Shown piece after piece: positions 26,715 to 38,288 of a DNA stretch of 38,288 bases (positions are counted from its first letter, which is position 1; every line of letters begins with the position of its first letter). Both the position numbers and the translations under genes were made by a program. The DNA comes from Acidobacteriota bacterium (GTDB lineage Bacteria > Acidobacteriota > Terriglobia > Acidiferrales > UBA7541): contig QHYN01000211.1 in the NCBI GenBank assembly GCA_003224145.1, forward strand, positions 1 through 38,288, read 5' to 3'. The notes under the pieces are model-generated. The model ran no database searches and was not told where the DNA came from. It saw nothing but the letters and a program-made list of their open reading frames with translations.

Positions 26715-28292
26715 CTATGAATATAAGAGATTGGTGTCGGCGCACAATGCGGACAATTCCTTGATGCAATGGATGGGTCCTTGTACGACAAACCGACGAT
26801 GATAGAGCAGGAGCGCGCGTAATCCCGCGAGTTCCTCACCTCCGCCGGCCCTTCCGGGACCGCCGTGCAAGCAACTGGGAACGACGTTGCCGTGGCCGGT
26901 GTGCTGGCCGCCAACCGAAGAATCCACGGCCAGAATTCTGCCGTGCAAGTCGCCGATTCCCAGCACGACTTCCTGAACAAAAGCGGAATCACTGGAAAAC
27001 ACAGAGGCAACCAGCGAGCCCTGGCCGCGGCGAATCATGGTAATCAAATCCTGGGGGCCATCGTAAGACAGCAAAGTTGCCACTGGACCGAACACTTCGA
27101 CATCGTGAACATGCTTTGCCGAAAGCCCATTTTCGCAGGAGAGAAGTGTGGGCTGAACAAAAGCAGACTTCTGCGGATCGGCGTCGACAGGCTGGAAGTC
27201 TTCGTTTCCGCCGAACAAAACCGAGCATTCTGCCGACAATTTTTTTAGGCCATCCAGGCAAGCGGACTGCTGCGCCTTGTTGACCACGGGCCCCACTTTT
27301 ACTTCGGAGTTGCGAGGATTACCGACTTTCATCGCACTCAAACGAGAAGAGACCGCTTCGCCGAAGGCATTGAACTCTTGAGCTGGCACCAGGATGCGCC
27401 GGATGGTGGTGCACTTCTGGCCGGCCTTCAGCGTCATTTCTTTCACGACTTCCTTGACGAGGAGGTCGAAGAGATCGGTTCCGGGAGCGCAATCCGGCCC
27501 AAGAATCGCGGAATTGATGCTGTCTGCCTCGATGTTTACGCGAACGGAACGGCGCAAGACATTGGCATGCGAGCGAATGCGCGCAGCGGTGTCCGCGGAA
27601 CCGGTGAAGGAGACGATGTCTTCTTCGCGAACGTGATCGAGCAGATCGCGGGCCGAGCCGCAAACCAGGGAAATCGCGCCCCGAGGCAAAATGTCAGCCT
27701 TTACAACATCTTCCACCATTCTGTGGGCCAGCCAGGCTGTGGGGGAGGCAGGCTTCACAAGGATGGGAACCCCTGAAAGAAGGGCGGGTGCCGCTTTTTC
27801 GCAAAAGCCCCAGGCAGGAAAATTGAAGGCGTTGATGAAAACTGCCACGCCTTTGGCGGGCACCAGAAAATGTTGGCCGGCGAATGTGTTTGTTTTGGAG
27901 AGAGGAAGGACCGCGCCTTCCTTGAGCATCTTCCCGCCCGCCAAGGCGCGGCCAATCTTCGCGTAATACTTCATGGTGTAGAGGGCGCCGTCGACATCGA
28001 AAGAGGCATCCGCTTGCGTGGCGCCAAGATTCAGCAGCGAGAGCCGAAAGTATTCGTCGCGATTCGCGGAGAGCACATCGGCCATTTTGGCGAGCAGATC
28101 GGCGCGTTGCGTGTAGGTGAGCTGGCGCAAAGCGGGTCCGCCTCGAGAACGCGCGAACTCCAGTGCGAGGTTCAGGTCGATGTTTTGCGAGGAGATGCGT
28201 GCAAGCTCCTCTCCGGTGACCGGATCGACCAGCGGTTCACCGGCGCCCGCGCCTTCCAGCCATTGGCCGGCGACATAATTGGGCAGCTTCAT
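26715..28292 (-). CDS. boxD: 3,4-dehydroadipyl-CoA semialdehyde dehydrogenase (BoxD-like)
   Basis: This 525-residue aldehyde dehydrogenase is predicted to oxidise the ring-opened aldehyde of the aerobic benzoyl-CoA (Box) pathway, 3,4-dehydroadipyl-CoA semialdehyde, to the acid with NAD(P)+. It has the catalytic cysteine in [11 protein letters not shown] (near residue 292), the glutamate region in [13 protein letters not shown], and the cofactor helix start [11 protein letters not shown]. The N-terminus ([20 protein letters not shown]) and [10 protein letters not shown] match BoxD/PaaZ-type enzymes. PaaZ is fused to a hydratase domain, which is absent here. A strong AAGGAGG site precedes the ATG. 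The gene is divergent from boxR-boxC-boxB, sharing a 293-bp control region. The roughly 20-residue C-terminal tail after VVQGP looks longer than usual. Confidence 0.88.
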
Positions 28293-28388
28293 GCAAGAAC
28301 CTCCTTAGACGATGGAAGCCACAGAATACCCCTCGAGTGAATGGCGAAGGGGTTAAAGCAAGAATCGTTGAGCAGGCATAATATTGCA

Positions 28389-28402
28389 TGTTCAGACGAA
28401 CA
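28389..28402. promoter_or_regulatory. TGTTC-N4-GAACA palindrome in the boxD/boxR divergent region
   Basis: TGTTC-AGAC-GAACA is a perfect 5-bp inverted repeat close to boxD, next to an AT-rich ATAATATT stretch that could be the boxD -10 on the minus strand. It is a candidate repressor site. The regulator is unknown; it could be BoxR or the TetR protein at 35157. It resembles in inverted orientation the GAAC-N4-GTTC palindromes near that TetR gene. Confidence 0.4.
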
Positions 28403-28531
28403 AAATCCAGTTCAACCTTTGAGGTACAAGACTGATGATCTTAGTCATTGCCTTGAAAATAAGACTCTTAACTGAGCTCGTACCGAGTGATCTGCCCATT
28501 GAAGAGTGTGCAGTAAAACTCCACTTAGGGA

Positions 28532-28562
28532 TTGACGAGCCCACCTCTCCGTGTAATATAAT
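28532..28562 (+). promoter_or_regulatory. Candidate boxR-boxC-boxB promoter (TTGACG ... TATAAT)
   Basis: TTGACG at 28532-28537 is followed by TAATAT at 28554-28559 (16-bp spacer) or by TATAAT at 28557-28562 (19-bp spacer). Transcription would start about 17 bases before the boxR ATG, which has no visible ribosome site. TGCA half-sites occur at 28385-28388, 28509-28512 and 28562-28565, but the TGCA-N6-TGCA palindrome known for the related BzdR regulator is not present. Confidence 0.55.
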
Positions 28563-28585
28563 GCAGGTGCTGCTACTGCTTCGCT

Positions 28586-29497
28586 ATGAGCACTCAAACA
28601 AGCCCCCAATCAAAGGTCTCTACTCTACACGGAACAGGCCTGTCTGCCGATGGCAATTTTTTGATTTCCCTAGGCAAGCGTGTCCGTGAGTTGCGCAACC
28701 GACGAGGCATGACCCGTAAACAGGTATCACAGGACGCAGATGTGTCGGAGCGCCATCTGGCCCAATTGGAGAGCGGCGAAGGAAATATCTCCGTGGTGCT
28801 GCTGCAGAGGATCGCCGCCGCGCTAAATGTGCCGGTCGCAAACTTGTTTGCGGCGCAAGCCGAAGAGCCCACCGAGAAAAGATTGATTCAACGATTCCTG
28901 GAACGGCTGCCCGCGCATCGTCTTGAGGACGTGGTGTTCCGCCTGATGCGCGACTTCGGTCACGAAGAAAAGATGCGGAGGATGCGCATCGCGTTGATCG
29001 GGATGCGCGGAGCGGGCAAGTCCACGCTGGGCTCGATGCTCGCAAAGGAGACGAAGAACCGCTTCGTGGAACTGGATGGCGAGATCGAAAAGGATACGGG
29101 GATGCCGCTGGGCGAGATTTTCTCGCTCTACGGGCAATCCGGCTTTCGGGCCATCGAAAAGCGGACGCTGGAGAGAGTACTGAAAGAAAATGAACGCGCG
29201 GTAATTTCGGTGGGAGGCGGAGTAGTATCCGAAAAAGAGACCTTTGATTATCTGCTTTCCAACTGCTATGCAGTGTGGATCAAAGCGCAGCCGGAAGAAC
29301 ACATGTCGCGAGTGATGGCGCAAGGAGATTTTCGCCCCATGGCGGCGAACGATCAAGCGATGGAAGACCTTCGGCACATACTGGAGGTTCGGGAACCGCT
29401 TTACCGGAAAGCCGACCTTGTGCTGGAGACCTCCGGGACTTCCGTGGAAGAGAGTTTTGCGAAGCTGAAAGCAATATTAGCGGCGAATTTGCAATAG
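28586..29497 (+). CDS. boxR: BoxR/BzdR-type regulator: XRE helix-turn-helix fused to shikimate-kinase-like domain
   Basis: This 303-residue regulator has an XRE-type HTH (about residues 30-85, RVRELRNRRGMTRKQVSQDA then SERHLAQLESGEGNIS). A linker leads to a shikimate-kinase-like domain with Walker A GMRGAGKST at 139-147 and VISVGGGVVSEKE downstream. In BzdR and BoxR of Azoarcus this domain binds benzoyl-CoA and relieves repression rather than phosphorylating shikimate. Its place directly before boxC, divergent from boxD, fits that role. It ends 15 bp before boxC. There is no ribosome site at the ATG. It is not a biosynthetic aroK: the HTH fusion and context argue against that. Confidence 0.92.
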   Translation: MSTQTSPQSKVSTLHGTGLSADGNFLISLGKRVRELRNRRGMTRKQVSQDADVSERHLAQLESGEGNISVVLLQRIAAALNVPVANLFAAQAEEPTEKRLIQRFLERLPAHRLEDVVFRLMRDFGHEEKMRRMRIALIGMRGAGKSTLGSMLAKETKNRFVELDGEIEKDTGMPLGEIFSLYGQSGFRAIEKRTLERVLKENERAVISVGGGVVSEKETFDYLLSNCYAVWIKAQPEEHMSRVMAQGDFRPMAANDQAMEDLRHILEVREPLYRKADLVLETSGTSVEESFAKLKAILAANLQ

Positions 29498-29512
29498 CAA
29501 TAGGAGGATGGC

Positions 29513-31195
29513 GTGGACGTAGCGGTATCTCAAGAGGTGAAAACAAAAGCGGCCCCTGTGGACTACCAGACGGAACCTTCGCGATACAAGCACTGGCGGC
29601 TCTCCTTCGACGGTCCGGTGGCAACGCTGACGATGGACGCAGAAGAAGACGGCGGGATTCGCCCAGGCTACAAACTAAAACTGAATTCCTATGACCTGGG
29701 TGTGGACATCGAGCTTCACGATGCGCTGCAGCGGATTCGGTTTGAGCATCCGGAGATTCGTTCGGTAATCATCACAAGCGCAAAGAACCGGATTTTTTGC
29801 TCCGGGGCCAATATCTACATGCTGGGACTTTCCTCGCACGCGTGGAAAGTGAATTTCTGCAAATTCACCAATGAAACGCGCAACGGGATCGAAGATTCGA
29901 GCAGATATTCGGGGCTGAAGTTCCTGGTAGCCTGCAATGGAACGACAGCCGGTGGAGGGTACGAGCTGGCGCTGGCCTGCGATGAAATCATCCTGGTGGA
30001 TGATCGTTCGTCCGCTGTGAGCTTGCCCGAACTGCCTCTGCTGGGAGTCCTGCCCGGAACGGGCGGGCTGACGCGCCTGACGGACAAGAGAAAAGTTCGC
30101 AAAGACCTTGCGGACATGTTCTGCACCAATCAGGACGGAGTGCGCGGGCAAAGAGCAAAGGATTGGCGGCTGGTGGATGAAATCGTCAAGCCGCAGCAGT
30201 TTGCTGAGCACGTCAAGCAGCGCGCGCTGAAGCTTGCGGAATTGTCCGACCGTCCCATGGGAGCGAAAGGCGTGCTGCTGACGCCGTTGAAGAAGCTGGC
30301 GGACGATGTTGGCTTGCATTATGAATACGTGGAAGTGCAATTCAACCGGACAGCGCGCACGGCGACGATCACGGTGCGGGCGCCAGAATTGGTTGCCGAG
30401 CAAACGGTCGAAAAAGCCCTCGCGGCGGGAGCGAACTGGTGGCCGCTGCGAATGGCGCGCGAACTGGATGATGCCATCCTCAGCTTGCGCACGAACGAGC
30501 TTGAATTGGGACTCTGGCTGATGAAAACGTCGGGGAACGCTGACGCCGTTCTCGCCATGGACAAATTTCTCTTGAGCCATCAAGACAACTGGTTCGTGCG
30601 CGAGGCGTTGGGGATGGTGAGGCGCACGTTTGCGCGGATGGAGGTCACTTCGCGCTCGATGTACGCGATTGCCGAGCCGGGATCGTGCTTCGCGGGAACA
30701 TTGCTGGAACTGGCGCTGGCGGCGGACCGAGTTTACATGCGGGATACGGAAGAAGCCGAGAGCGTGGCCACGATGGTGCTTTCGAAAATGAACTTCGGGG
30801 CGCTGCCGATGGTGAATCACCTTTCGCGGCTGGCGTCACGGTTCTATGAAGACCAGGCACAGATGAAGTCCTTGGGCAATCAGATCGGGAAAAAGCTTTC
30901 CGCACGCGAAGCGCTCGAACTAGGGCTCGTGACCGCGGCGCCCGACGATCTCGACTGGGAGGACGAAATCCGCCAGGCGATGGAATCGCGCGTTGCACAA
31001 TCGCCCGATGCCCTGACAGGACTCGAAGCTAATTTGCGATTTGGCCCCGTGGAAACGCCTGAAACGCGAATCTTCGGGCGGCTGTCGGCGTGGCAAAACT
31101 GGATTTTCGTGCGACCGAACGCAGTTGGTCCGAGCGGGGCGCTGAAAGTCTATGGTTCAGGCGCACCGGTGAAATTCGACTGGGAAAGGGTTTAG
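29513..31195 (+). CDS. boxC: Benzoyl-CoA-dihydrodiol lyase / 2,3-epoxybenzoyl-CoA dihydrolase
   Basis: This 560-residue crotonase-superfamily enzyme hydrolyses 2,3-epoxybenzoyl-CoA with ring opening and loss of formate to give 3,4-dehydroadipyl-CoA semialdehyde. The first half carries the enoyl-CoA hydratase fold (RSVIITSAKNRIFCSGANIY near residue 90, oxyanion strand CNGTTAGGGYELALACDEII near 145, and LPELPLLGVLPGTGGLTRL). The second half is a degenerate crotonase-like repeat (GTLLELALAADRVYM), as in characterised BoxC. Length matches the family. The start is a GTG with AGGAGG 5 bases upstream; an overlapping ATG is out of frame. It lies between boxR and boxB. Confidence 0.95.
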   Translation: MDVAVSQEVKTKAAPVDYQTEPSRYKHWRLSFDGPVATLTMDAEEDGGIRPGYKLKLNSYDLGVDIELHDALQRIRFEHPEIRSVIITSAKNRIFCSGANIYMLGLSSHAWKVNFCKFTNETRNGIEDSSRYSGLKFLVACNGTTAGGGYELALACDEIILVDDRSSAVSLPELPLLGVLPGTGGLTRLTDKRKVRKDLADMFCTNQDGVRGQRAKDWRLVDEIVKPQQFAEHVKQRALKLAELSDRPMGAKGVLLTPLKKLADDVGLHYEYVEVQFNRTARTATITVRAPELVAEQTVEKALAAGANWWPLRMARELDDAILSLRTNELELGLWLMKTSGNADAVLAMDKFLLSHQDNWFVREALGMVRRTFARMEVTSRSMYAIAEPGSCFAGTLLELALAADRVYMRDTEEAESVATMVLSKMNFGALPMVNHLSRLASRFYEDQAQMKSLGNQIGKKLSAREALELGLVTAAPDDLDWEDEIRQAMESRVAQSPDALTGLEANLRFGPVETPETRIFGRLSAWQNWIFVRPNAVGPSGALKVYGSGAPVKFDWERV

Positions 31196-31235
31196 GGAAC
31201 AGGTTTCAGCCTGAGGGGTACTGAGGGGACCGGCG

Positions 31236-32660
<1,425 letters not shown>

Positions 32661-32704
32661 TGTGTAACAAAGCCGGCACGGTCTGTGGCTAAGGGTGGAA
32701 TTTT

Positions 32705-33553
32705 GTGCAGCCGATTATCGATATCCACATCCACATCATGCCTTATCACATGGTCAAGCCTTCCGCACTGGAACTGATCAAGAAAGGCCGCAAGGACTAC
32801 GCCGAGGTGGAACGCTATTCTACGGATCCCAAAGCCTTTCTTGCATTTCTTGACACTCTCGGAGTGGAGCGCGCAGGGCTGATCAACTACGTCGCGCCGA
32901 AAATTATCGGGTTCACTCCGGAAGTCAATGACTGGAGCGCGAAATATTGCAGCGTGGCACCAGATCGGCTCATTGCATTCGGCGGCGTGCTCCCAGGAAC
33001 GGTTCCCGATCCCGGCGCGGAAGTGGACCGCCTCGCGAAGCTCGGGATTCGCGCCATCAAGATGCATCCTTCCCACCAGGTGCTTTCGCCGAATGATTAC
33101 ATGGATGGCAACCGAGGTCTTGCGGCGATTTATGAACGCGCGCAGGCGAATGGTTTGCCGATCATGATTCACACCGGAACTTCGATTTTCCCGGGAGCCC
33201 GCAATCTGCACGCGCAGCCCATGCTGTGCGACGACATCCCGATCGATTATCCTGATCTCGTGGTCATTTTGGCGCATGGAGGAAGGCCTCTCTGGATGAA
33301 CGAAGCGTTCTTCCTGGTTCGCCGGCATAAGAATATGCATATGGATATCTCCGGCATTCCTCCGCAGAAATTGATGGAATACTTTCCGCGAATTGAGGAT
33401 GTCGCCGACAAAGTGTTATGGGGCACGGATTGGCCCGGACCGGGCGTTCCGGAGATCAAAGGAAACATCGAGAAATTCAATGCACTGCCCATCGGGAAAG
33501 CCGCAAAAAGGAAAATTTTGTATGACAACGCCGCGCGGCTGTTTCCGAAGTGA
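32705..33553 (+). CDS. Amidohydrolase-2 family (ACMSD/decarboxylase-like) metalloenzyme
   Basis: This 282-residue TIM-barrel metalloenzyme has the amidohydrolase ligands in order: DIHIHIM (H8 and H10), IMIHTG (histidine near 156), ILAHGG (histidine near 191) and WGTDWPGPG (aspartate near 242). This subfamily includes decarboxylases such as gamma-resorcylate and ACMS decarboxylase, lactonases and hydrolases. The start is a GTG with AAGGGTGG upstream. It sits between boxB and an aryl-CoA ligase in the same direction, so a substrate feeding the benzoyl-CoA route (for example a hydroxybenzoate) is plausible. It is not part of the canonical Box pathway. The reaction cannot be assigned from sequence alone. 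Confidence 0.85.
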   Translation: MQPIIDIHIHIMPYHMVKPSALELIKKGRKDYAEVERYSTDPKAFLAFLDTLGVERAGLINYVAPKIIGFTPEVNDWSAKYCSVAPDRLIAFGGVLPGTVPDPGAEVDRLAKLGIRAIKMHPSHQVLSPNDYMDGNRGLAAIYERAQANGLPIMIHTGTSIFPGARNLHAQPMLCDDIPIDYPDLVVILAHGGRPLWMNEAFFLVRRHKNMHMDISGIPPQKLMEYFPRIEDVADKVLWGTDWPGPGVPEIKGNIEKFNALPIGKAAKRKILYDNAARLFPK

Positions 33554-33639
33554 AGCGCGATTCGAAGTGGCGCAAAACGACCTTATGAATTGGTTGGTCG
33601 GGCCACGTCGCGGGAAGTTTGAGGAGCCGGACAGAACCG

Positions 33640-34935
33640 ATGCCCACCTTCGACCAGTCAGTTGAGAAGCTGCCGCGCGAACAGTTGCGCGCGCTTCAGT
33701 TTCAGAAGCTGCAAGAAGTGCTTCGCCTGGTTTTTGGCCGCAACCGCTTCTACACAAAGAAATGGCGCGAAGCGGGCCTAACATCGCACGACATCCAGTC
33801 ACTGACCGATCTTCGGAAACTTCCTTTCACTTGCAAATCGGAGCTCATGCAGGCGCAAGAAGAAGCGCCTCCTTTTGGAACCAACGCAACTTTCCTGGAA
33901 AACGCGTACTCACGTGTCCATCAGACATCGGGAACCACGGGTACGCCTTTGCGCGTCGTAGACACTCCAGAAAGCTGGGAATGGTGGGGCAGATGCTGGG
34001 GACAGGTCCTGCGAGGCGCAGGCGTGACTGCGGAAGATCGCATCTTTTTGCCCTTCGCCTTTGGTCCCTTCATCGGCTTTTGGGCCGCCGTCGAGGGGGC
34101 GAGGCAGCTCGGAGCGATGATGATTCCCGGCGGTGGATGGGACTCCGTGCAACGCCTTCACATGATGCGGGACCTCAGAGCGACGGTGATCTGCTGCACA
34201 CCCACGTACGCCCTGCGGTTGGCAGAAGTCGCCCGCGAACAGCTTTTTGACCTACGATCCATTCCCGTCCGTGCATTGATTCACGCGGGGGAGCCGGGAG
34301 CGAACGTCGCGCGAACCAAGGCGCGCATCGAAGCCGCGTGGGAAGCGAAGTGCTTCGATCATGCGGGCGCCTCGGAAGTAGGCGCTCACAGTTTCGAATG
34401 CGAACTCCAGCCCGGTGGAATTCATATCATCGAGAGTGAGTTCATCATCGAAGTAATCGACCCGCAAACAGGAGCGGAACTGCCTCCCGGCGAAACCGGA
34501 GAGCTGGTCATCACGAATCTGGGGCGTCCCGGGTTTCCCGTCATTCGGTACCGTACGGGGGACCTGGTGCAGCTCAATCTGGCCCCTTGCGCCTGCGGGC
34601 GCACCTATGCGCGCTTCGACGGAGGACTGCTCGGCCGCAGCGATGACATGGTGACCATTCGCGGCGTGAATGTTTATCCCACAGCCATCGAAAACGTGAT
34701 CCGCCAGTTTTCCGCGGTCGACGAGTTTCAAGTGACGGTGAAAACCCTGCAGGAGATGCACTACCTCGAAGTGCAAATCGAAGTCATTTCCGGCCACAAT
34801 CCGGAAAACGTGCGCACCGACGTTGAACAGGCCATCTATCGTTCGCTGTCACTTCGACCCACGGTCACCGTGGCGCAACCCGGCGCCCTCGCGCGTTTTG
34901 AGCTGAAGGCTCGGCGCTTCCGGCGCCTCGATTGA
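33640..34935 (+). CDS. Aryl-CoA ligase of the phenylacetate-CoA ligase (PaaK) type
   Basis: This 431-residue AMP-forming ligase activates an aromatic acid with ATP and CoA. It has the P-loop motif HQTSGTTGTPLRV (near residue 95), an HAGASEVGAHSFEC block, RYRTGDLVQL, a cysteine pair in APCACGRTY, and the PaaK-type C-terminal GRSDDMVTIRGVNVYP. Its length is that of PaaK (about 430-440), not of the roughly 520-residue benzoate-CoA ligases BclA/BadA usually found with box genes. In this context benzoate or 4-hydroxybenzoate is a likely substrate, by inference. The ATG at 33640 is 13 bases after GAGGAG; a TTG within that site is in frame but less likely. Confidence 0.9.
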   Translation: MPTFDQSVEKLPREQLRALQFQKLQEVLRLVFGRNRFYTKKWREAGLTSHDIQSLTDLRKLPFTCKSELMQAQEEAPPFGTNATFLENAYSRVHQTSGTTGTPLRVVDTPESWEWWGRCWGQVLRGAGVTAEDRIFLPFAFGPFIGFWAAVEGARQLGAMMIPGGGWDSVQRLHMMRDLRATVICCTPTYALRLAEVAREQLFDLRSIPVRALIHAGEPGANVARTKARIEAAWEAKCFDHAGASEVGAHSFECELQPGGIHIIESEFIIEVIDPQTGAELPPGETGELVITNLGRPGFPVIRYRTGDLVQLNLAPCACGRTYARFDGGLLGRSDDMVTIRGVNVYPTAIENVIRQFSAVDEFQVTVKTLQEMHYLEVQIEVISGHNPENVRTDVEQAIYRSLSLRPTVTVAQPGALARFELKARRFRRLD

Positions 34936-35033
34936 CATTCAGCCCCCGCTCTTCCTAAAGCCACCTACTCCGCCGGCGACCAATCAAAATAGCCTTCGAG
35001 AGCGGCGATAATGGCGTTCCCTTATCGTGAACT

Positions 35034-35066
35034 GAACAGATGTTCGTTTTCTGAACTGTGGTTCAG
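35034..35066. promoter_or_regulatory. Two GAAC-N4-GTTC palindromes upstream of the TetR gene
   Basis: GAAC-AGAT-GTTC at 35034-35045 and CTGAAC-TGTG-GTTCAG at 35051-35066 (6-bp arms) are spaced 19 bp start to start. The second ends 6 bases before the -35 of the promoter at 35073. The spacing and position suggest cooperative binding by the TetR-family product of the next gene. Confidence 0.55.
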
Positions 35067-35072
35067 ATTACC

Positions 35073-35101
35073 TTGATACTGGCAAGGAAAAAGAGCATAC
35101 T
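35073..35101 (+). promoter_or_regulatory. Candidate promoter for tetR-hcrC-hcrA (TTGATA-17-CATACT)
   Basis: TTGATA at 35073-35078 and CATACT at 35096-35101 are 17 bp apart. Transcription would begin near 35108, about 50 bases before the TTG start at 35157. It would drive the regulator and the molybdenum-enzyme genes separately from the box operon. Confidence 0.5.
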
Positions 35102-35156
35102 AGACTCGCAGAATGTCTCTGGCTGCATTGCTTCTGCTTCTCAGCGGAGGATTAGA

Positions 35157-35867
35157 TTGTCACAAGGCCAATCCAAGAATCAGCGCAATGGCCGCGTCCG
35201 GCGGCGCTATCTTGCGCGGCGGCTAGAGATCCTGCGTGCCGCGGGGCGGGAGTTCCGCGCGCGCGGTTTTGCGGAAACCGGCATGCGCGACATTGCAGAA
35301 GCGGCAGCACTTTCTCCCGCGAATCTTTATAACTACTTCAAAGGCAAGCACGAGATTCTTTACTTCTGCCAGGACAACGCGCTGGATCGAATGATCGGCG
35401 CGCTGGGAACGGCACGCCGCAGAAAAACAAGTGCAGCGGCAAGATTACAGTCTGTGATTGTGTCGCATCTGCGCTGCCTGCTCGATGAAGTCGAAGGGTC
35501 TGCGGCGCATCTTTTGACAAGCGCTTTGCCGCCCCGCCAGCAACGGTATCTCGTGGCCAAACGCGACCGATACGAGCAGGGCGTTCGCAACATCGTCGCC
35601 GCGGGGATCCGTTCCGGTGAGTTTGCTCCCCGCGATGCGGCGCTTGCGGCGCGCGCGATGTTGGGAGCCTTGAACTGGAGCGTGCAGTGGTTCCGTCCGG
35701 AAGGGCCGCTGACCGCGACGGAGATCGCCGAAGATTTGGCGGATTATCTGATTCGAGGTTTGCTAGCCAAGCCGGATCCTCTTCAACGATTTTCCTCAGG
35801 TCGGGAAACACAGCAAGTGGTCCGGGAATTTGTTTCTCACGATGCGCGAAAACGTGCATCGGCTTAA
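35157..35867 (+). CDS. TetR/AcrR-family transcriptional regulator
   Basis: This 236-residue regulator has an N-terminal HTH (LEILRAAGREFRARGFAETG, MRDIAEAAALSPANLYNYFK, and KHEILYF), the classic TetR layout. The ligand-binding C-terminal domain is variable. The start is a TTG at 35157 with GGAGG six bases upstream, giving a conventional N-terminus; an in-frame GTG at 35058 overlaps the palindrome and has no ribosome site. It lies 25 bp upstream of the 2Fe-2S subunit gene on the same strand. It probably controls its own operon, perhaps responding to an aryl-CoA as several aromatic-degradation TetR proteins do, but the ligand is inference. Confidence 0.9.
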   Translation: MSQGQSKNQRNGRVRRRYLARRLEILRAAGREFRARGFAETGMRDIAEAAALSPANLYNYFKGKHEILYFCQDNALDRMIGALGTARRRKTSAAARLQSVIVSHLRCLLDEVEGSAAHLLTSALPPRQQRYLVAKRDRYEQGVRNIVAAGIRSGEFAPRDAALAARAMLGALNWSVQWFRPEGPLTATEIAEDLADYLIRGLLAKPDPLQRFSSGRETQQVVREFVSHDARKRASA

Positions 35868-35892
35868 CGGCGTCTCCAAGAGGTGATGTAAA

Positions 35893-36429
35893 GTGGCGAC
35901 AATCCCGATCGAATCGCAGAAAACAGCGCAAATCCGGTTTGCCTTGAACGGCGAAGAAATGGACGTCTCCTTCGCGCCTTACAAGACTTTGCTGGAAGTT
36001 CTGCGAGAGGATCTCGGCCATACGGGGACGAAGCATGGCTGCGAACTCGGAGAATGCGGCGCTTGCGCCGTTCTTTTGGACGGCAAGCCGGTGCTTTCCT
36101 GCCTTTTGCTGGCGCTCGAGTGCGATGGAAGGTACGTCCTGACGGTAGAAGGACTCGGAGAAGACGCCAAGCTTCACCCTCTGCAGGATGCTTTTGCCGA
36201 CCTTGGAGCAGCGCAATGCGGGTACTGCACGCCGGGAATACTGGTAACCGCAAAGGCCCTGCTCGACGGAAACCCGCATCCGAGCCGCGATCAAATCCGG
36301 GAAGCGCTCTCAGGAAATCTCTGCCGTTGCACGGGCTATCTTCAGATTTTCGAGGCCGTGGAAGCCGCAATGGTGAAGATCACGGAACAGAGAGAAGAAG
36401 CAAAACCGATTCCGCGGCGGCTTGCTTAA
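35893..36429 (+). CDS. hcrC: (2Fe-2S) subunit of a 4-hydroxybenzoyl-CoA-reductase-like molybdenum enzyme
   Basis: This 178-residue subunit carries both [2Fe-2S] clusters of the xanthine-oxidase family. The plant-type cluster is held by C50, C55, C58 and C70 (GCELGECGACAVL, LSC). The second is held by C109, C112, C144 and C146 (AQCGYCTPG, NLCRCTGY). It passes electrons to or from the molybdenum subunit. The start is a GTG with AGAGGTGAT upstream. It is followed after 22 bp by the molybdopterin subunit. The name hcrC rests on the partner's resemblance to HcrA and on the benzoyl-CoA context; the small subunit alone does not separate it from other molybdenum hydroxylases. Confidence 0.75.
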   Translation: MATIPIESQKTAQIRFALNGEEMDVSFAPYKTLLEVLREDLGHTGTKHGCELGECGACAVLLDGKPVLSCLLLALECDGRYVLTVEGLGEDAKLHPLQDAFADLGAAQCGYCTPGILVTAKALLDGNPHPSRDQIREALSGNLCRCTGYLQIFEAVEAAMVKITEQREEAKPIPRRLA

Positions 36430-36451
36430 CGAACGCGCGCCGGGAGGTCAG

Positions 36452-38288
36452 ATGTCGGATCAGAAAGATCCACCGAAAAAACTCGCTCAGGATTCTGGAG
36501 CGAACGGCGAAGCATTGCGTGTCATTGGTGTCCCGCGCCGTCGCGTGGACGCTCGCGCAAAGGTGACCGGGCAAACACGCTTCGCGGACGACATATTCCT
36601 CCCACGAATGGCGCATTGCAAACTCCTGCGCTCTCTCCATCCTCACGCGCGCATTCGAAAGATTGATGCTTCGCGGGCGCTCGCGCATCCCGGTGTGTAT
36701 CTGGTTCTGACCGGGAAAGACCTTCCCATCCAATACGGGATTCTACCGGTGAGCCAGGACGAGCAGGCGCTTTGCCTCGATCGTGCGCGGCATGTGGGTG
36801 ATCCGGTTGCTGCGGTTGTGGCGCGCGAAGAGTTGACGGCATTCGAAGCCCTGGATTTAATCGATGTGGACTATGAAATCCTGGCAACCATCTCCGATCC
36901 CGAAGAAGCGCTCGTGACTCCAGAGCCGCGCATTCACGAATACGGCGAGGAAGGAAACATTCACAAGCTCGTGGCCCTGGAGTTCGGAAACGTCGAGGAA
37001 GGGTTTGCCGAAGCAGATGAGATTTTCGAGGACACTTTTTTCTACCAGGGAAACACGCATCTTCCCATCGAGCAGCACGCCGCCGTAGCCATCAAGGATC
37101 CCGATGGAAAGCTGACCATCTGGTCGAGCACACAGACGCCCCATTACGTGCATCGCGCTCTGGCGAAAGTGCTCGAAATGCCGGCCGCGCACATTCGCGT
37201 GATCGCCACTCCGAATGGCGGGGGCTTTGGCGGGAAGAGCGATCCTTTCAATCACGAGATTGTTGTGGCCAAAGCGGCCCTGCTCCTTGACCGGCCGGTG
37301 AAAATCTGCCTGACGCGCGAAGAGGTTTTCTACTGTCACAGAGGGCGCCACCCGGTGCTCATGAAATTCAAAACCGGCGTAAAAAAGGACGGCAGGATCA
37401 CCGGAATGCATCTGCAAACACTGATCGATGGTGGTGCCTATGGCTCGTACGGAGTTGCGAGCACCTATTACGCCGGCGCGCTGCAGACCACCACCTACCA
37501 TATCCCGCGCTATCGCTATGAAGGCTGTCGGACGTTTACCAACAAACCGCCATGCGGCCCCAAGCGCGGCCACGGCACCCCTCAGCCTCGTTTTGGCCAG
37601 GAAGTCCAGCTCGACAAAATTGCAGAAAAAATCCAGATCGATCCGGCAGAATTGCGCCTACGCATTCTGGAATCTCCGAACACGGTGACGGCAAATTTCC
37701 TCCGGCTGGGAACGGTAAATCTCGCCGAGTGCATCCAGCGGGTCGTAAAGGTTTCCGACTGGAAAGAGAAATTTCGCAAACTCCCGGATGGACGCGGCGT
37801 GGGACTCGCTTGCTCTGCATATTTAACCGGCGCGGGTTTGCCTATCTACTGGAACAAGATGCCGCATTCCGGCGTGCAATTGAAATTCGATCGCGGCGGC
37901 GGTGTGGCGATTTTCTGCGGCGCCACGGAAATCGGGCAGGGGTCCGATGACGTTCTCGCGGCAATCGTCGCGGAAGTTCTCGGCATCGAGCCGTTTGATG
38001 TGCGCCTGTTTACCGGCGACACGGACCTTGGTCCCGTAGATTTGGGTTCGTATTCGAGCCGCGTAACATTGATGGCGGGAAACGCCGCACTGCAAGCCGC
38101 GGAACGCGGAAAAGCACTCCTGGCCGAAGCGGTTGCACTGAAATTGGAAGTACCCAAAGAAAGGCTGCGCTTCGCCGGAAAGCGCGTCTTCGATTTCGCC
38201 GCGCCTGAAAAAGGCGTTAGTTTCGCGGAAGCTATTTGCCTCGCGGAAGCGCGCTTCGGAACGATTGGTACGGTGGGCTCTTACACTC
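36452..38288 (+). CDS. hcrA: 4-hydroxybenzoyl-CoA-reductase-like molybdopterin subunit (3' end beyond window)
   Basis: An open frame of 612 codons from the ATG at 36452 (GGGAGG upstream) to the right edge encodes a xanthine-dehydrogenase-family molybdopterin subunit. Motifs in order are GDPVAAVVAREE, PNGGGFGGKSDPF (Mo-cofactor binding), GGAYGSYGVASTYYAGALQT, TNKPPCGPKRGHGTP, GATEIGQGSDDVLA and LGSYSSRVTLMAGNAAL. By memory of the family, these resemble HcrA of Thauera, which reductively removes the para-hydroxyl from 4-hydroxybenzoyl-CoA to give benzoyl-CoA; the GxLP and PCGxxRGHGT stretches fit best. About 150 C-terminal residues, including the catalytic-glutamate region, lie outside. The FAD subunit (hcrB) would be expected downstream. 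Other molybdenum hydroxylases remain possible. Confidence 0.75.
   Translation, partial: MSDQKDPPKKLAQDSGANGEALRVIGVPRRRVDARAKVTGQTRFADDIFLPRMAHCKLLRSLHPHARIRKIDASRALAHPGVYLVLTGKDLPIQYGILPVSQDEQALCLDRARHVGDPVAAVVAREELTAFEALDLIDVDYEILATISDPEEALVTPEPRIHEYGEEGNIHKLVALEFGNVEEGFAEADEIFEDTFFYQGNTHLPIEQHAAVAIKDPDGKLTIWSSTQTPHYVHRALAKVLEMPAAHIRVIATPNGGGFGGKSDPFNHEIVVAKAALLLDRPVKICLTREEVFYCHRGRHPVLMKFKTGVKKDGRITGMHLQTLIDGGAYGSYGVASTYYAGALQTTTYHIPRYRYEGCRTFTNKPPCGPKRGHGTPQPRFGQEVQLDKIAEKIQIDPAELRLRILESPNTVTANFLRLGTVNLAECIQRVVKVSDWKEKFRKLPDGRGVGLACSAYLTGAGLPIYWNKMPHSGVQLKFDRGGGVAIFCGATEIGQGSDDVLAAIVAEVLGIEPFDVRLFTGDTDLGPVDLGSYSSRVTLMAGNAALQAAERGKALLAEAVALKLEVPKERLRFAGKRVFDFAAPEKGVSFAEAICLAEARFGTIGTVGSYT

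What the first reader, a model, noticed from the sequence alone, without database searches (positions are those of the whole stretch)
26715..38288. Hybrid locus joining the O2-dependent Box pathway to a 4-hydroxybenzoyl-CoA-reductase-like enzyme in an Acidobacteriota-like genome
boxD, boxR, boxC and boxB are clear. They are followed by an amidohydrolase, a PaaK-type ligase, a TetR regulator and HcrC/HcrA-like subunits. In Thauera and Rhodopseudomonas, 4-hydroxybenzoyl-CoA reductase is known from anaerobic metabolism, while BoxB needs oxygen. A route 4-hydroxybenzoate to 4-hydroxybenzoyl-CoA to benzoyl-CoA to epoxide would be a new way to feed phenolic acids into the Box pathway in soil bacteria.
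Basis: partly seen in the sequence, partly recalled or inferred. Interest (0 to 1): 0.75.

Follow-up and report, generated by a model that had tools for sequence, protein, structure and literature searches.

The report
Benzoate epoxide cluster with dehydroxylase cousin
A soil acidobacterium keeps the oxygen-using genes for breaking down benzoyl-CoA next to a molybdenum enzyme related to one known mainly from anaerobic bacteria that strips hydroxyl groups from aromatic rings, which suggests a way to feed plant phenols into an aerobic pathway, although a residue normally needed for catalysis is changed in every close relative that could be read.

Summary
boxD, boxR, boxC and boxB pass curated cut-offs; an amidohydrolase, a PaaK-type ligase, a TetR regulator and hcrC/hcrA-like genes follow, and the contig ends inside hcrA. 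Relatives show hcrB next, with the four-cysteine [4Fe-4S] insertion. In the window's order, 22 of 95 genomes carry both this hcrA and boxB; in 19 they share a contig. Outside the order they co-occur but are not linked. The molybdenum subunit groups with HcrA, not CoxL or quinoline enzymes, as a sister clade ("type 1"). It misses the 4-hydroxybenzoyl-CoA reductase cut-offs and has Gln for the catalytic Glu in 81 of 81 readable rows. Membership is therefore not met, but "works like it" stays likely: in phylogenetically paired comparisons type 1 varies with a benzoyl-CoA consumer (BoxB or BcrC-like; p about 0.008, trait combined after seeing counts), not significantly with BoxB alone. Glu-bearing HcrA, over cut-off in the two members tested, also lies beside true boxB or a shorter BoxB-like gene elsewhere. 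BoxA was not found over cut-off. Aerobic reductive dehydroxylation before Box is already proposed for Aromatoleum. New variant of a known kind; substrate unproven.

The parts
26715..28292 (-). boxD, 3,4-dehydroadipyl-CoA semialdehyde dehydrogenase
   Evidence: NF008868 783 bits, cut-off 444
28586..29497 (+). boxR, regulator with HTH and shikimate-kinase-like domains
   Evidence: NF006015 401 bits, cut-off 204; HTH_3 and SKI domains
29513..31195 (+). boxC, 2,3-epoxybenzoyl-CoA dihydrolase
   Evidence: TIGR03222 918 bits, cut-off 712
31236..32660 (+). boxB, benzoyl-CoA 2,3-epoxidase
   Evidence: TIGR03225 873 bits, cut-off 499
32705..33553 (+). amidohydrolase-2 protein, reaction unknown
   Evidence: PF04909 143 bits; model pLDDT 88.5; best folds 3irs (uncharacterised) and 5-carboxyvanillate decarboxylase 4l6d
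33619..34935 (+). PaaK-type CoA ligase
   Evidence: 4r1l phenylacetate-CoA ligase 247 bits; below the NCBIfam PaaK cut-offs; a 72% relative lies next to hcrCAB in L111
35058..35867 (+). TetR regulator
   Evidence: PF00440, PF17932
35893..36429 (+). hcrC-like [2Fe-2S] subunit
   Evidence: PF00111/PF01799; no NCBIfam cut-off reached
36455..38288 (+). hcrA-like molybdenum subunit (type 1), cut by the contig end; the catalytic Glu/Gln site lies beyond the end
   Evidence: TIGR03194 best model; tree; 3' end seen only in relatives

Best explanation
The locus encodes an aerobic aryl-CoA route. A PaaK-type ligase (or the unlinked benzoate-CoA-ligase-family protein of the same genome) makes a hydroxyaryl-CoA, most likely 4-hydroxybenzoyl-CoA. 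An HcrCAB-like molybdenum enzyme takes the ring hydroxyl off reductively, with electrons entering through the extra [4Fe-4S] cluster of HcrB, and gives benzoyl-CoA. BoxB then epoxidises it with O2, BoxC opens the ring and BoxD oxidises the aldehyde. Shown here: gene identities, conserved linkage in the order, the 4Fe-4S site in relatives, grouping with HcrA, and co-distribution with benzoyl-CoA consumers. Inferred: the substrate, the direction of the Mo reaction and the electron donor. The Mo enzyme is a sister clade of known 4-hydroxybenzoyl-CoA reductase with Gln at the catalytic Glu position; how it manages without the Glu is not known.
For: Box genes over cut-off. boxB and hcrA in one locus in 13 of the 80 loci fetched with HcrA. 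In the 22 order genomes with both, 16 have them 1.4-4.8 kb apart and three more have boxB and hcr genes on one contig that breaks inside hcrC or hcrA. HcrB keeps all four cluster cysteines in 73 of 73 type-1 rows. Closest solved structure for both large subunits is Thauera 4-HBCR: 596 bits against 258 for the next for HcrA, 185 against 110 for HcrB. HcrA plus type 1 is one side of a branch at 96/91. Type 1 with BoxB-or-BcrC on the gyrB tree: 8.2 pairs for, 0 against, median p 0.008 (nine pairings were tried and this combined trait was chosen after seeing the counts, no correction). 28 of 30 type-1 genomes have one of the two. Type-1 HcrB and BoxB in 297 Acidobacteriota: 26/18/23/230, p 8e-13, not corrected for phylogeny, the window's genome set to 'neither' because its hcrB is off the assembly. 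A paaK 72% identical to the window's lies directly before hcrCAB in L111. A Glu-bearing HcrA over its cut-off lies 530 bp after true boxB with hcrC between, boxB and hcrC overlapping, in L097.
Against: Type 1 misses the cut-offs of all three Hcr models (794 against 994.55 and 265 against 404.55 for L010 A and B; 173 against 257.8 for the window's C). Gln at the catalytic Glu in 81 of 81 readable rows. In three of the 22 order genomes with both, boxB and hcr lie apart (G315, G357, G379). Outside the order, 0 of 26 genomes with both have them near each other; a one-contig genome has them about 3 Mb apart. Type 1 against BoxB alone is not significant on the tree (4.6 for, 0.4 against, p 0.125). 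18 of 44 Acidobacteriota with type-1 HcrB lack a BoxB over cut-off, one of them (G215) with a BoxB fragment. Six type-1 genomes of the order without BoxB have a BcrC-like reductase instead, so BoxB is not the only partner. Complementarity with PobA seen in raw counts is not seen on the tree.
Confidence: 0.55

Rival explanations
1. Type 1 is a Mo aryl-CoA enzyme with another substrate or reaction (another hydroxybenzoyl-CoA isomer, a dihydroxy- or methoxybenzoyl-CoA, or a reaction without oxygen transfer), whose product still enters Box or a benzoyl-CoA reductase.
For: Invariant Glu to Gln and eleven other columns fixed differently from HcrA proper, among them Q673E, A356P and M357K (one of the eleven, 606, rests on two type-1 rows); below cut-offs; separate clade.
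Against: The nearest solved relative is 4-HBCR on both large subunits, the 4Fe-4S entry point is kept, and none of the 52 order genomes with HcrA was seen with both types (30 and 22; p 1e-4 uncorrected; fragments below the E<=1e-150 threshold would be missed), as if they were alternatives for one job.
Confidence: 0.3
2. The Hcr-like enzyme serves an oxygen-free benzoyl-CoA reductase route and Box is the oxic alternative in a facultative organism; the two are neighbours because both handle benzoyl-CoA, not because they run together.
For: BcrC-like genes (E<=1e-40, one over cut-off) occur in 23 of 95 order genomes, all 23 with some HcrA; paired test 8.2 to 0, p 0.008; one contig (L110 and L101) carries bcr-like, box and hcr genes.
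Against: No BcrC-like match at E<=1e-40 in the window's genome or in any of the 18 type-1 genomes of its genus, of which 17 have BoxB. Class II reductase was not tested.
Confidence: 0.1
3. The neighbourhood is incidental: the Mo enzyme is an unrelated xanthine-dehydrogenase-type hydroxylase.
For: In many other Acidobacteriota the type-1 genes lie among other genes, for example panB/panC/folK-like ones by my reading of the sequences; HcrC itself is not diagnostic.
Against: Recurrent linkage in the order, co-distribution with benzoyl-CoA consumers, the HcrB 4Fe-4S site and the tree.
Confidence: 0.05

Closest known systems
4-hydroxybenzoyl-CoA reductase HcrABC of Thauera aromatica (PDB 1rm6/1sb3)
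   Same: Subunit make-up in relatives, [4Fe-4S] insertion of HcrB with the same four cysteine columns, closest solved structure for HcrA and HcrB.
   Different: 38-43% identity for type-1 HcrA; below NCBIfam equivalog cut-offs; Gln for Glu726; sister clade.
Box pathway (BoxB/BoxC/BoxD)
   Same: BoxB, BoxC, BoxD and BoxR over cut-off.
   Different: No BoxA over cut-off in 95 order genomes or in 47 BoxB-bearing Acidobacteriota, the window's included; benzoate-CoA-ligase family gene not in the locus but elsewhere in the genome.
Aerobic 3-(4-hydroxyphenyl)propanoate route of Aromatoleum aromaticum EbN1 (PMC9765128; passages and section 5 part 1 of 2 seen)
   Same: Presumptive reductive dehydroxylation to benzoyl-CoA listed as shared by anoxic and oxic growth; benzoyl-CoA then goes through Box in air.
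   Different: Facultative denitrifier; the parts I saw do not describe a linked hcr-box block.
Ucdh, xanthine-oxidase-family dehydroxylase of the gut bacterium E. bolteae (PMC12771579, passages seen)
   Same: Another dehydroxylase whose closest characterised relative is 4-HBCR.
   Different: Acts on urolithin C, not a CoA ester, in an anaerobic gut bacterium; 32.7% identity to 4-HBCR as the paper gives it.

Membership tests
4-hydroxybenzoyl-CoA reductase | Curated equivalog scores of the three subunits | tested here: not met
   A 794/994.55 and B 265/404.55 for L010; C 173/257.8 for the window
4-hydroxybenzoyl-CoA reductase | Catalytic Glu (Thauera Glu726) in HcrA | tested here: not met
   Gln in 81 of 81 readable type-1 rows, with at least two genomes apparently present twice; 3 of 84 rows too short, the window's among them
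4-hydroxybenzoyl-CoA reductase | [4Fe-4S] insertion in the FAD subunit | tested here: met
   73 of 73 type-1 and 9 of 9 type-2/3 HcrB rows keep the four cysteine columns; E. coli XdhB lacks them; E. coli PaoB has Cys in three of the four, so the trait is not exclusive. Seen in relatives; hcrB is off the window's contig.
4-hydroxybenzoyl-CoA reductase | Mo subunit groups with HcrA | tested here: met
   96/91 against CoxL, QorL, XdhA and two own-genome paralogues, 16 of 22 type-1 rows used (which warns of long outgroup branches); unresolved with two more long paralogues
4-hydroxybenzoyl-CoA reductase | Reduces 4-hydroxybenzoyl-CoA to benzoyl-CoA | not testable with these tools
   Needs an enzyme assay
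Box pathway | BoxB, BoxC and BoxD equivalogs | tested here: met
   All over cut-off
Box pathway | BoxA reductase | tested here: not met
   0 of 95 order genomes and 0 of 47 BoxB-bearing genomes (41 of the 50 plus six of the order) over cut-off; weak matches at E<=1e-10 in 16 of 95 and 4 of 47. The control genomes hold no BoxA over cut-off either, so there was no positive control.
Box pathway | Benzoate-CoA ligase | tested here: met
   Benzoate-CoA ligase family (a subfamily model, not specific for benzoate) at G000:C280:2119-3654, 524 bits, cut-off 375; not in the locus

The most novel reading that the evidence does not exclude
Acidobacteriota hold an old sister of 4-hydroxybenzoyl-CoA reductase that removes ring hydroxyls of aryl-CoA esters in air without the catalytic glutamate of the xanthine oxidase family (perhaps with the role moved to the type-1 Glu at Thauera position 673, a reciprocal Gln/Glu exchange), and that feeds a benzoyl-CoA epoxidase which works without a known BoxA, both perhaps drawing on the same low-potential donor.
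Probability: 0.3. Interest if true: 0.78.

Novelty: new variant of a known kind. Interest (0 to 1): 0.6.

Why it matters
From general knowledge: Acidobacteriota are abundant in soils and their use of lignin-derived phenols is poorly known. A linked hcr-box block predicts that some of them strip the para-hydroxyl reductively even in air instead of adding a second hydroxyl with PobA; by the textbook pathways this would need one O2 per ring (BoxB) instead of two (PobA and a ring-cleaving dioxygenase), at the price of reductant and CoA activation. The Gln-for-Glu clade is a natural test of what the conserved glutamate of molybdenum hydroxylases does in a reductive reaction, and the BoxA that was not found makes the electron supply of BoxB a testable question.

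Tried and rejected
PobA exclusivity: in raw counts type-1 HcrA and PobA avoid each other in the genus (1 of 18 against 12 of 18, p 3e-4), but on the gyrB tree the pairs go 2.7 the same way and 0.7 the other way (p 0.6), so I do not use it.

One search was a first gyrB tree with five rows turned the wrong way round; one search replaces it. That tree holds 80 of 95 genomes: 12 had no match at the threshold and 3 with short matches (G354, G359, G382) were left out. It has one long row (G301) and 44 of 77 inner branches well supported. Nine pairings of traits were tested without correction.

Type 1 as a CoxL-, quinoline- or xanthine-dehydrogenase-type enzyme: rejected by score order and tree. One search left the join of type 1 and HcrA unresolved.

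The amidohydrolase: fold search gives decarboxylases, hydratases and iron-bearing proteins such as SfbO within a few orders of magnitude in E-value, so no reaction is assigned. It also occurs beside boxB without hcr (L116) and beside hcrB in type-2 loci.

I first took four of the six genomes with boxB and hcrA on different contigs for contig breaks; reading the contigs showed three (G314, G319, G340), while in G315 the boxB contig runs on for 9 kb without hcr genes.

Rfam gave no match; promoter- and terminator-like sites were about as many as in shuffles. Literature searches (listings, capped) showed no paper on a linked hcr-box block. I opened seven papers, by passages and one section part. 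Subscription papers are missing, and a BoxB structure paper was not held.
Full report
What is there. The window is a whole contig (G000:C140) of a 4.8 Mb draft genome and ends inside the last gene. From 26715 on it holds boxD on the minus strand and boxR, boxC, boxB, an amidohydrolase, a PaaK-type ligase, a TetR regulator, an hcrC-like gene and a truncated hcrA-like gene on the plus strand. The four box genes pass curated cut-offs. HcrA is best matched by the 4-hydroxybenzoyl-CoA reductase model and HcrC matches its model less well than another; neither passes.

What lies beyond the contig end. A scan of genome contigs with the truncated HcrA kept the best 80 of 335 loci; 69 of the 80 bear acidobacterial names in their record titles, counted by eye. 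In 57 of 80 a protein of one cluster with a median of 342 residues lies in the locus, in most of them directly downstream of hcrA. It is HcrB: the best solved relative of the L010 copy is the beta subunit of Thauera 4-HBCR, and all 73 type-1 HcrB rows keep the four cysteine columns of the [4Fe-4S] insertion. E. coli PaoB has Cys in three of the four, so this trait does not by itself prove the function.

Linkage. 13 of the 80 loci hold boxB and hcrA together. In the window's order, 95 genomes, 40 have BoxB over cut-off and 30 have type-1 HcrA (best copy 76% identity or more; list). 22 have both. In 16 of these the two genes lie 1.4-4.8 kb apart on one contig. In three more (G314, G319, G340) boxB and the start of the hcr genes are on one contig that ends inside hcrC or hcrA. 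In G315 (the boxB contig runs 9 kb on without hcr genes), G357 and G379 they are apart. In 297 Acidobacteriota spread over the phylum, 26 genomes in 14 family codes (counted by eye) have both type-1 HcrB and BoxB, far more than expected without correction for phylogeny, but in 25 they lie on different contigs and in the 26th, a one-contig genome, about 3 Mb apart. So linkage is a feature of the order; co-occurrence reaches further.

What kind of Hcr. Two groups of HcrA occur. Type 1 (the window's) is 64-92% identical to the window. Type 2/3 is 45-49% identical, groups with Thauera HcrA (99/99, 100/98), and the two members tested pass the HcrA cut-off (1001.7 and 1004.5 against 994.55); their HcrB stays below its cut-off (335 and 321 against 404.55), as does type 1 (265). 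Full-length type-1 HcrA from L010 scores 794. In the alignment the catalytic Glu of the family (Thauera Glu726; the role of the conserved Glu is from PMC10420851, passages; its place in Thauera is recalled and agrees with the alignment) is Glu in Thauera and all nine type-2/3 rows and Gln in 81 of 81 readable type-1 rows. The five solved chains shown all have Glu there. Eleven other columns are fixed differently between the two groups, one of them resting on only two type-1 rows. One of them, Thauera Gln673, is Glu in type 1, a reciprocal exchange whose nearness to the Mo site I could not check. The window's own protein stops before both sites.

What the others show. Type-2 loci (L093-L095, L099, L100) carry a TetR gene, enoyl-CoA hydratase-type genes, an aldehyde dehydrogenase (not called in L099), a short BoxB-like protein of about 380 residues, hcrA and hcrB (hcrC where called), and a relative of the window's amidohydrolase. 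CoA-transferase-type genes were found in the two loci where such genes were scanned (L094, L099) and a 3-hydroxyacyl-CoA dehydrogenase in L094 and L095. L106 is similar but has no short BoxB-like gene; its genome, G329, has true box genes elsewhere. The short BoxB-like protein of L095 is closest to BoxB in the PDB and by eye keeps the six iron ligands, whose names are recalled. In 13 genomes of the order the type-2 HcrA and the short BoxB-like gene lie 1.7-5.3 kb apart. In L097 and L098 an HcrA (over cut-off in L097, the one tested) follows true boxB at 530 bp with hcrC between, and in L097 boxB and hcrC overlap by four bases.

Who consumes the product. BcrC-like benzoyl-CoA reductase genes (E<=1e-40; one of 23 over cut-off) occur in 23 of 95 order genomes, and all 23 have some HcrA. 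Of 30 type-1 genomes, 22 have BoxB and six more have BcrC-like; the other two are G318 (74% complete) and G356 (84%, with a short BoxB-like gene). Any HcrA goes with any consumer (BoxB, short BoxB-like or BcrC-like) in 51 of 52 genomes, against 22 of 43 without HcrA. On a gyrB tree of 80 genomes the paired test gives 8.2 pairs for and 0 against for type 1 with BoxB-or-BcrC (median p 0.008), 9.3 and 0 for any HcrA with any consumer (p 0.004), but only 4.6 and 0.4 for type 1 with BoxB alone and 4.6 and 0.3 for type 2/3 with the short BoxB-like gene (both p 0.125). The combined traits were chosen after the counts were seen, and nine pairings were tried. In the window's genus none of the 18 type-1 genomes has a BcrC-like gene. 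One contig (L110 and L101) holds bcr-like, box and hcr genes together.

Reading. The most likely function is a reductive dehydroxylation of a hydroxyaryl-CoA that feeds benzoyl-CoA to BoxB in air. The gene content, the 4Fe-4S site and the consumer association are shown; the substrate, the direction and the donor are inferred. Because two defining features of 4-hydroxybenzoyl-CoA reductase were tested and not met, I do not file type 1 as a member; it is a sister clade that probably works in a similar way.

What is known. Aerobic reductive dehydroxylation upstream of Box is proposed for Aromatoleum aromaticum (PMC9765128; passages, and section 5 part 1 of 2). hcrAB and boxB in one acidobacterial bin, with annotated bcrABCD, were listed in 2016 (PMC4842900, passages). 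I found no description of a linked hcr-box block or of the Gln clade in searches, which cover open papers only.

Open points. BoxA was not found over its cut-off in any genome tested (0 of 95; 0 of 47), without a positive control, so the electron supply of BoxB here is unknown. The amidohydrolase has no assigned reaction.

Noticed in passing
G000 and relatives: BoxA (TIGR03224) reaches its cut-off in none of 95 order genomes and none of 47 BoxB-bearing Acidobacteriota tested; BoxB there may use another reductase. No positive control was at hand.
   Followed up: partly
L095:6475-7593 and relatives; G073, G121, G084, G210, G265: A short BoxB-like diiron-type protein (about 380 aa, 215 bits to BoxB in L095 against a cut-off of 499) lies on one contig with type-2/3 HcrA or HcrB in many Acidobacteriota; possibly an unnamed aryl-CoA epoxidase family.
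   Followed up: partly
window 32705-33553; L093-L095, L099, L100, L106, L116: The same amidohydrolase family lies beside BoxB in the window's order, with or without hcr, and beside hcrB in type-2 loci; its reaction is unknown.
   Followed up: partly
L110 (1-12000) with L101, one contig of G387: Benzoyl-CoA-reductase-like genes, box genes and type-1 hcr genes on one contig: oxygen-free and oxygen-dependent routes side by side.
   Followed up: partly
L068 and L070: Type-1 hcrCAB sits after genes that look like folK, panB and panC and before a MobA-like gene (named by eye from the sequences; the clusters recur in other loci).
   Followed up: no
the 95 order genomes: No genome was seen with both type-1 and type-2/3 HcrA (30 and 22 of 95; p 1e-4 without correction for phylogeny).
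   Followed up: partly
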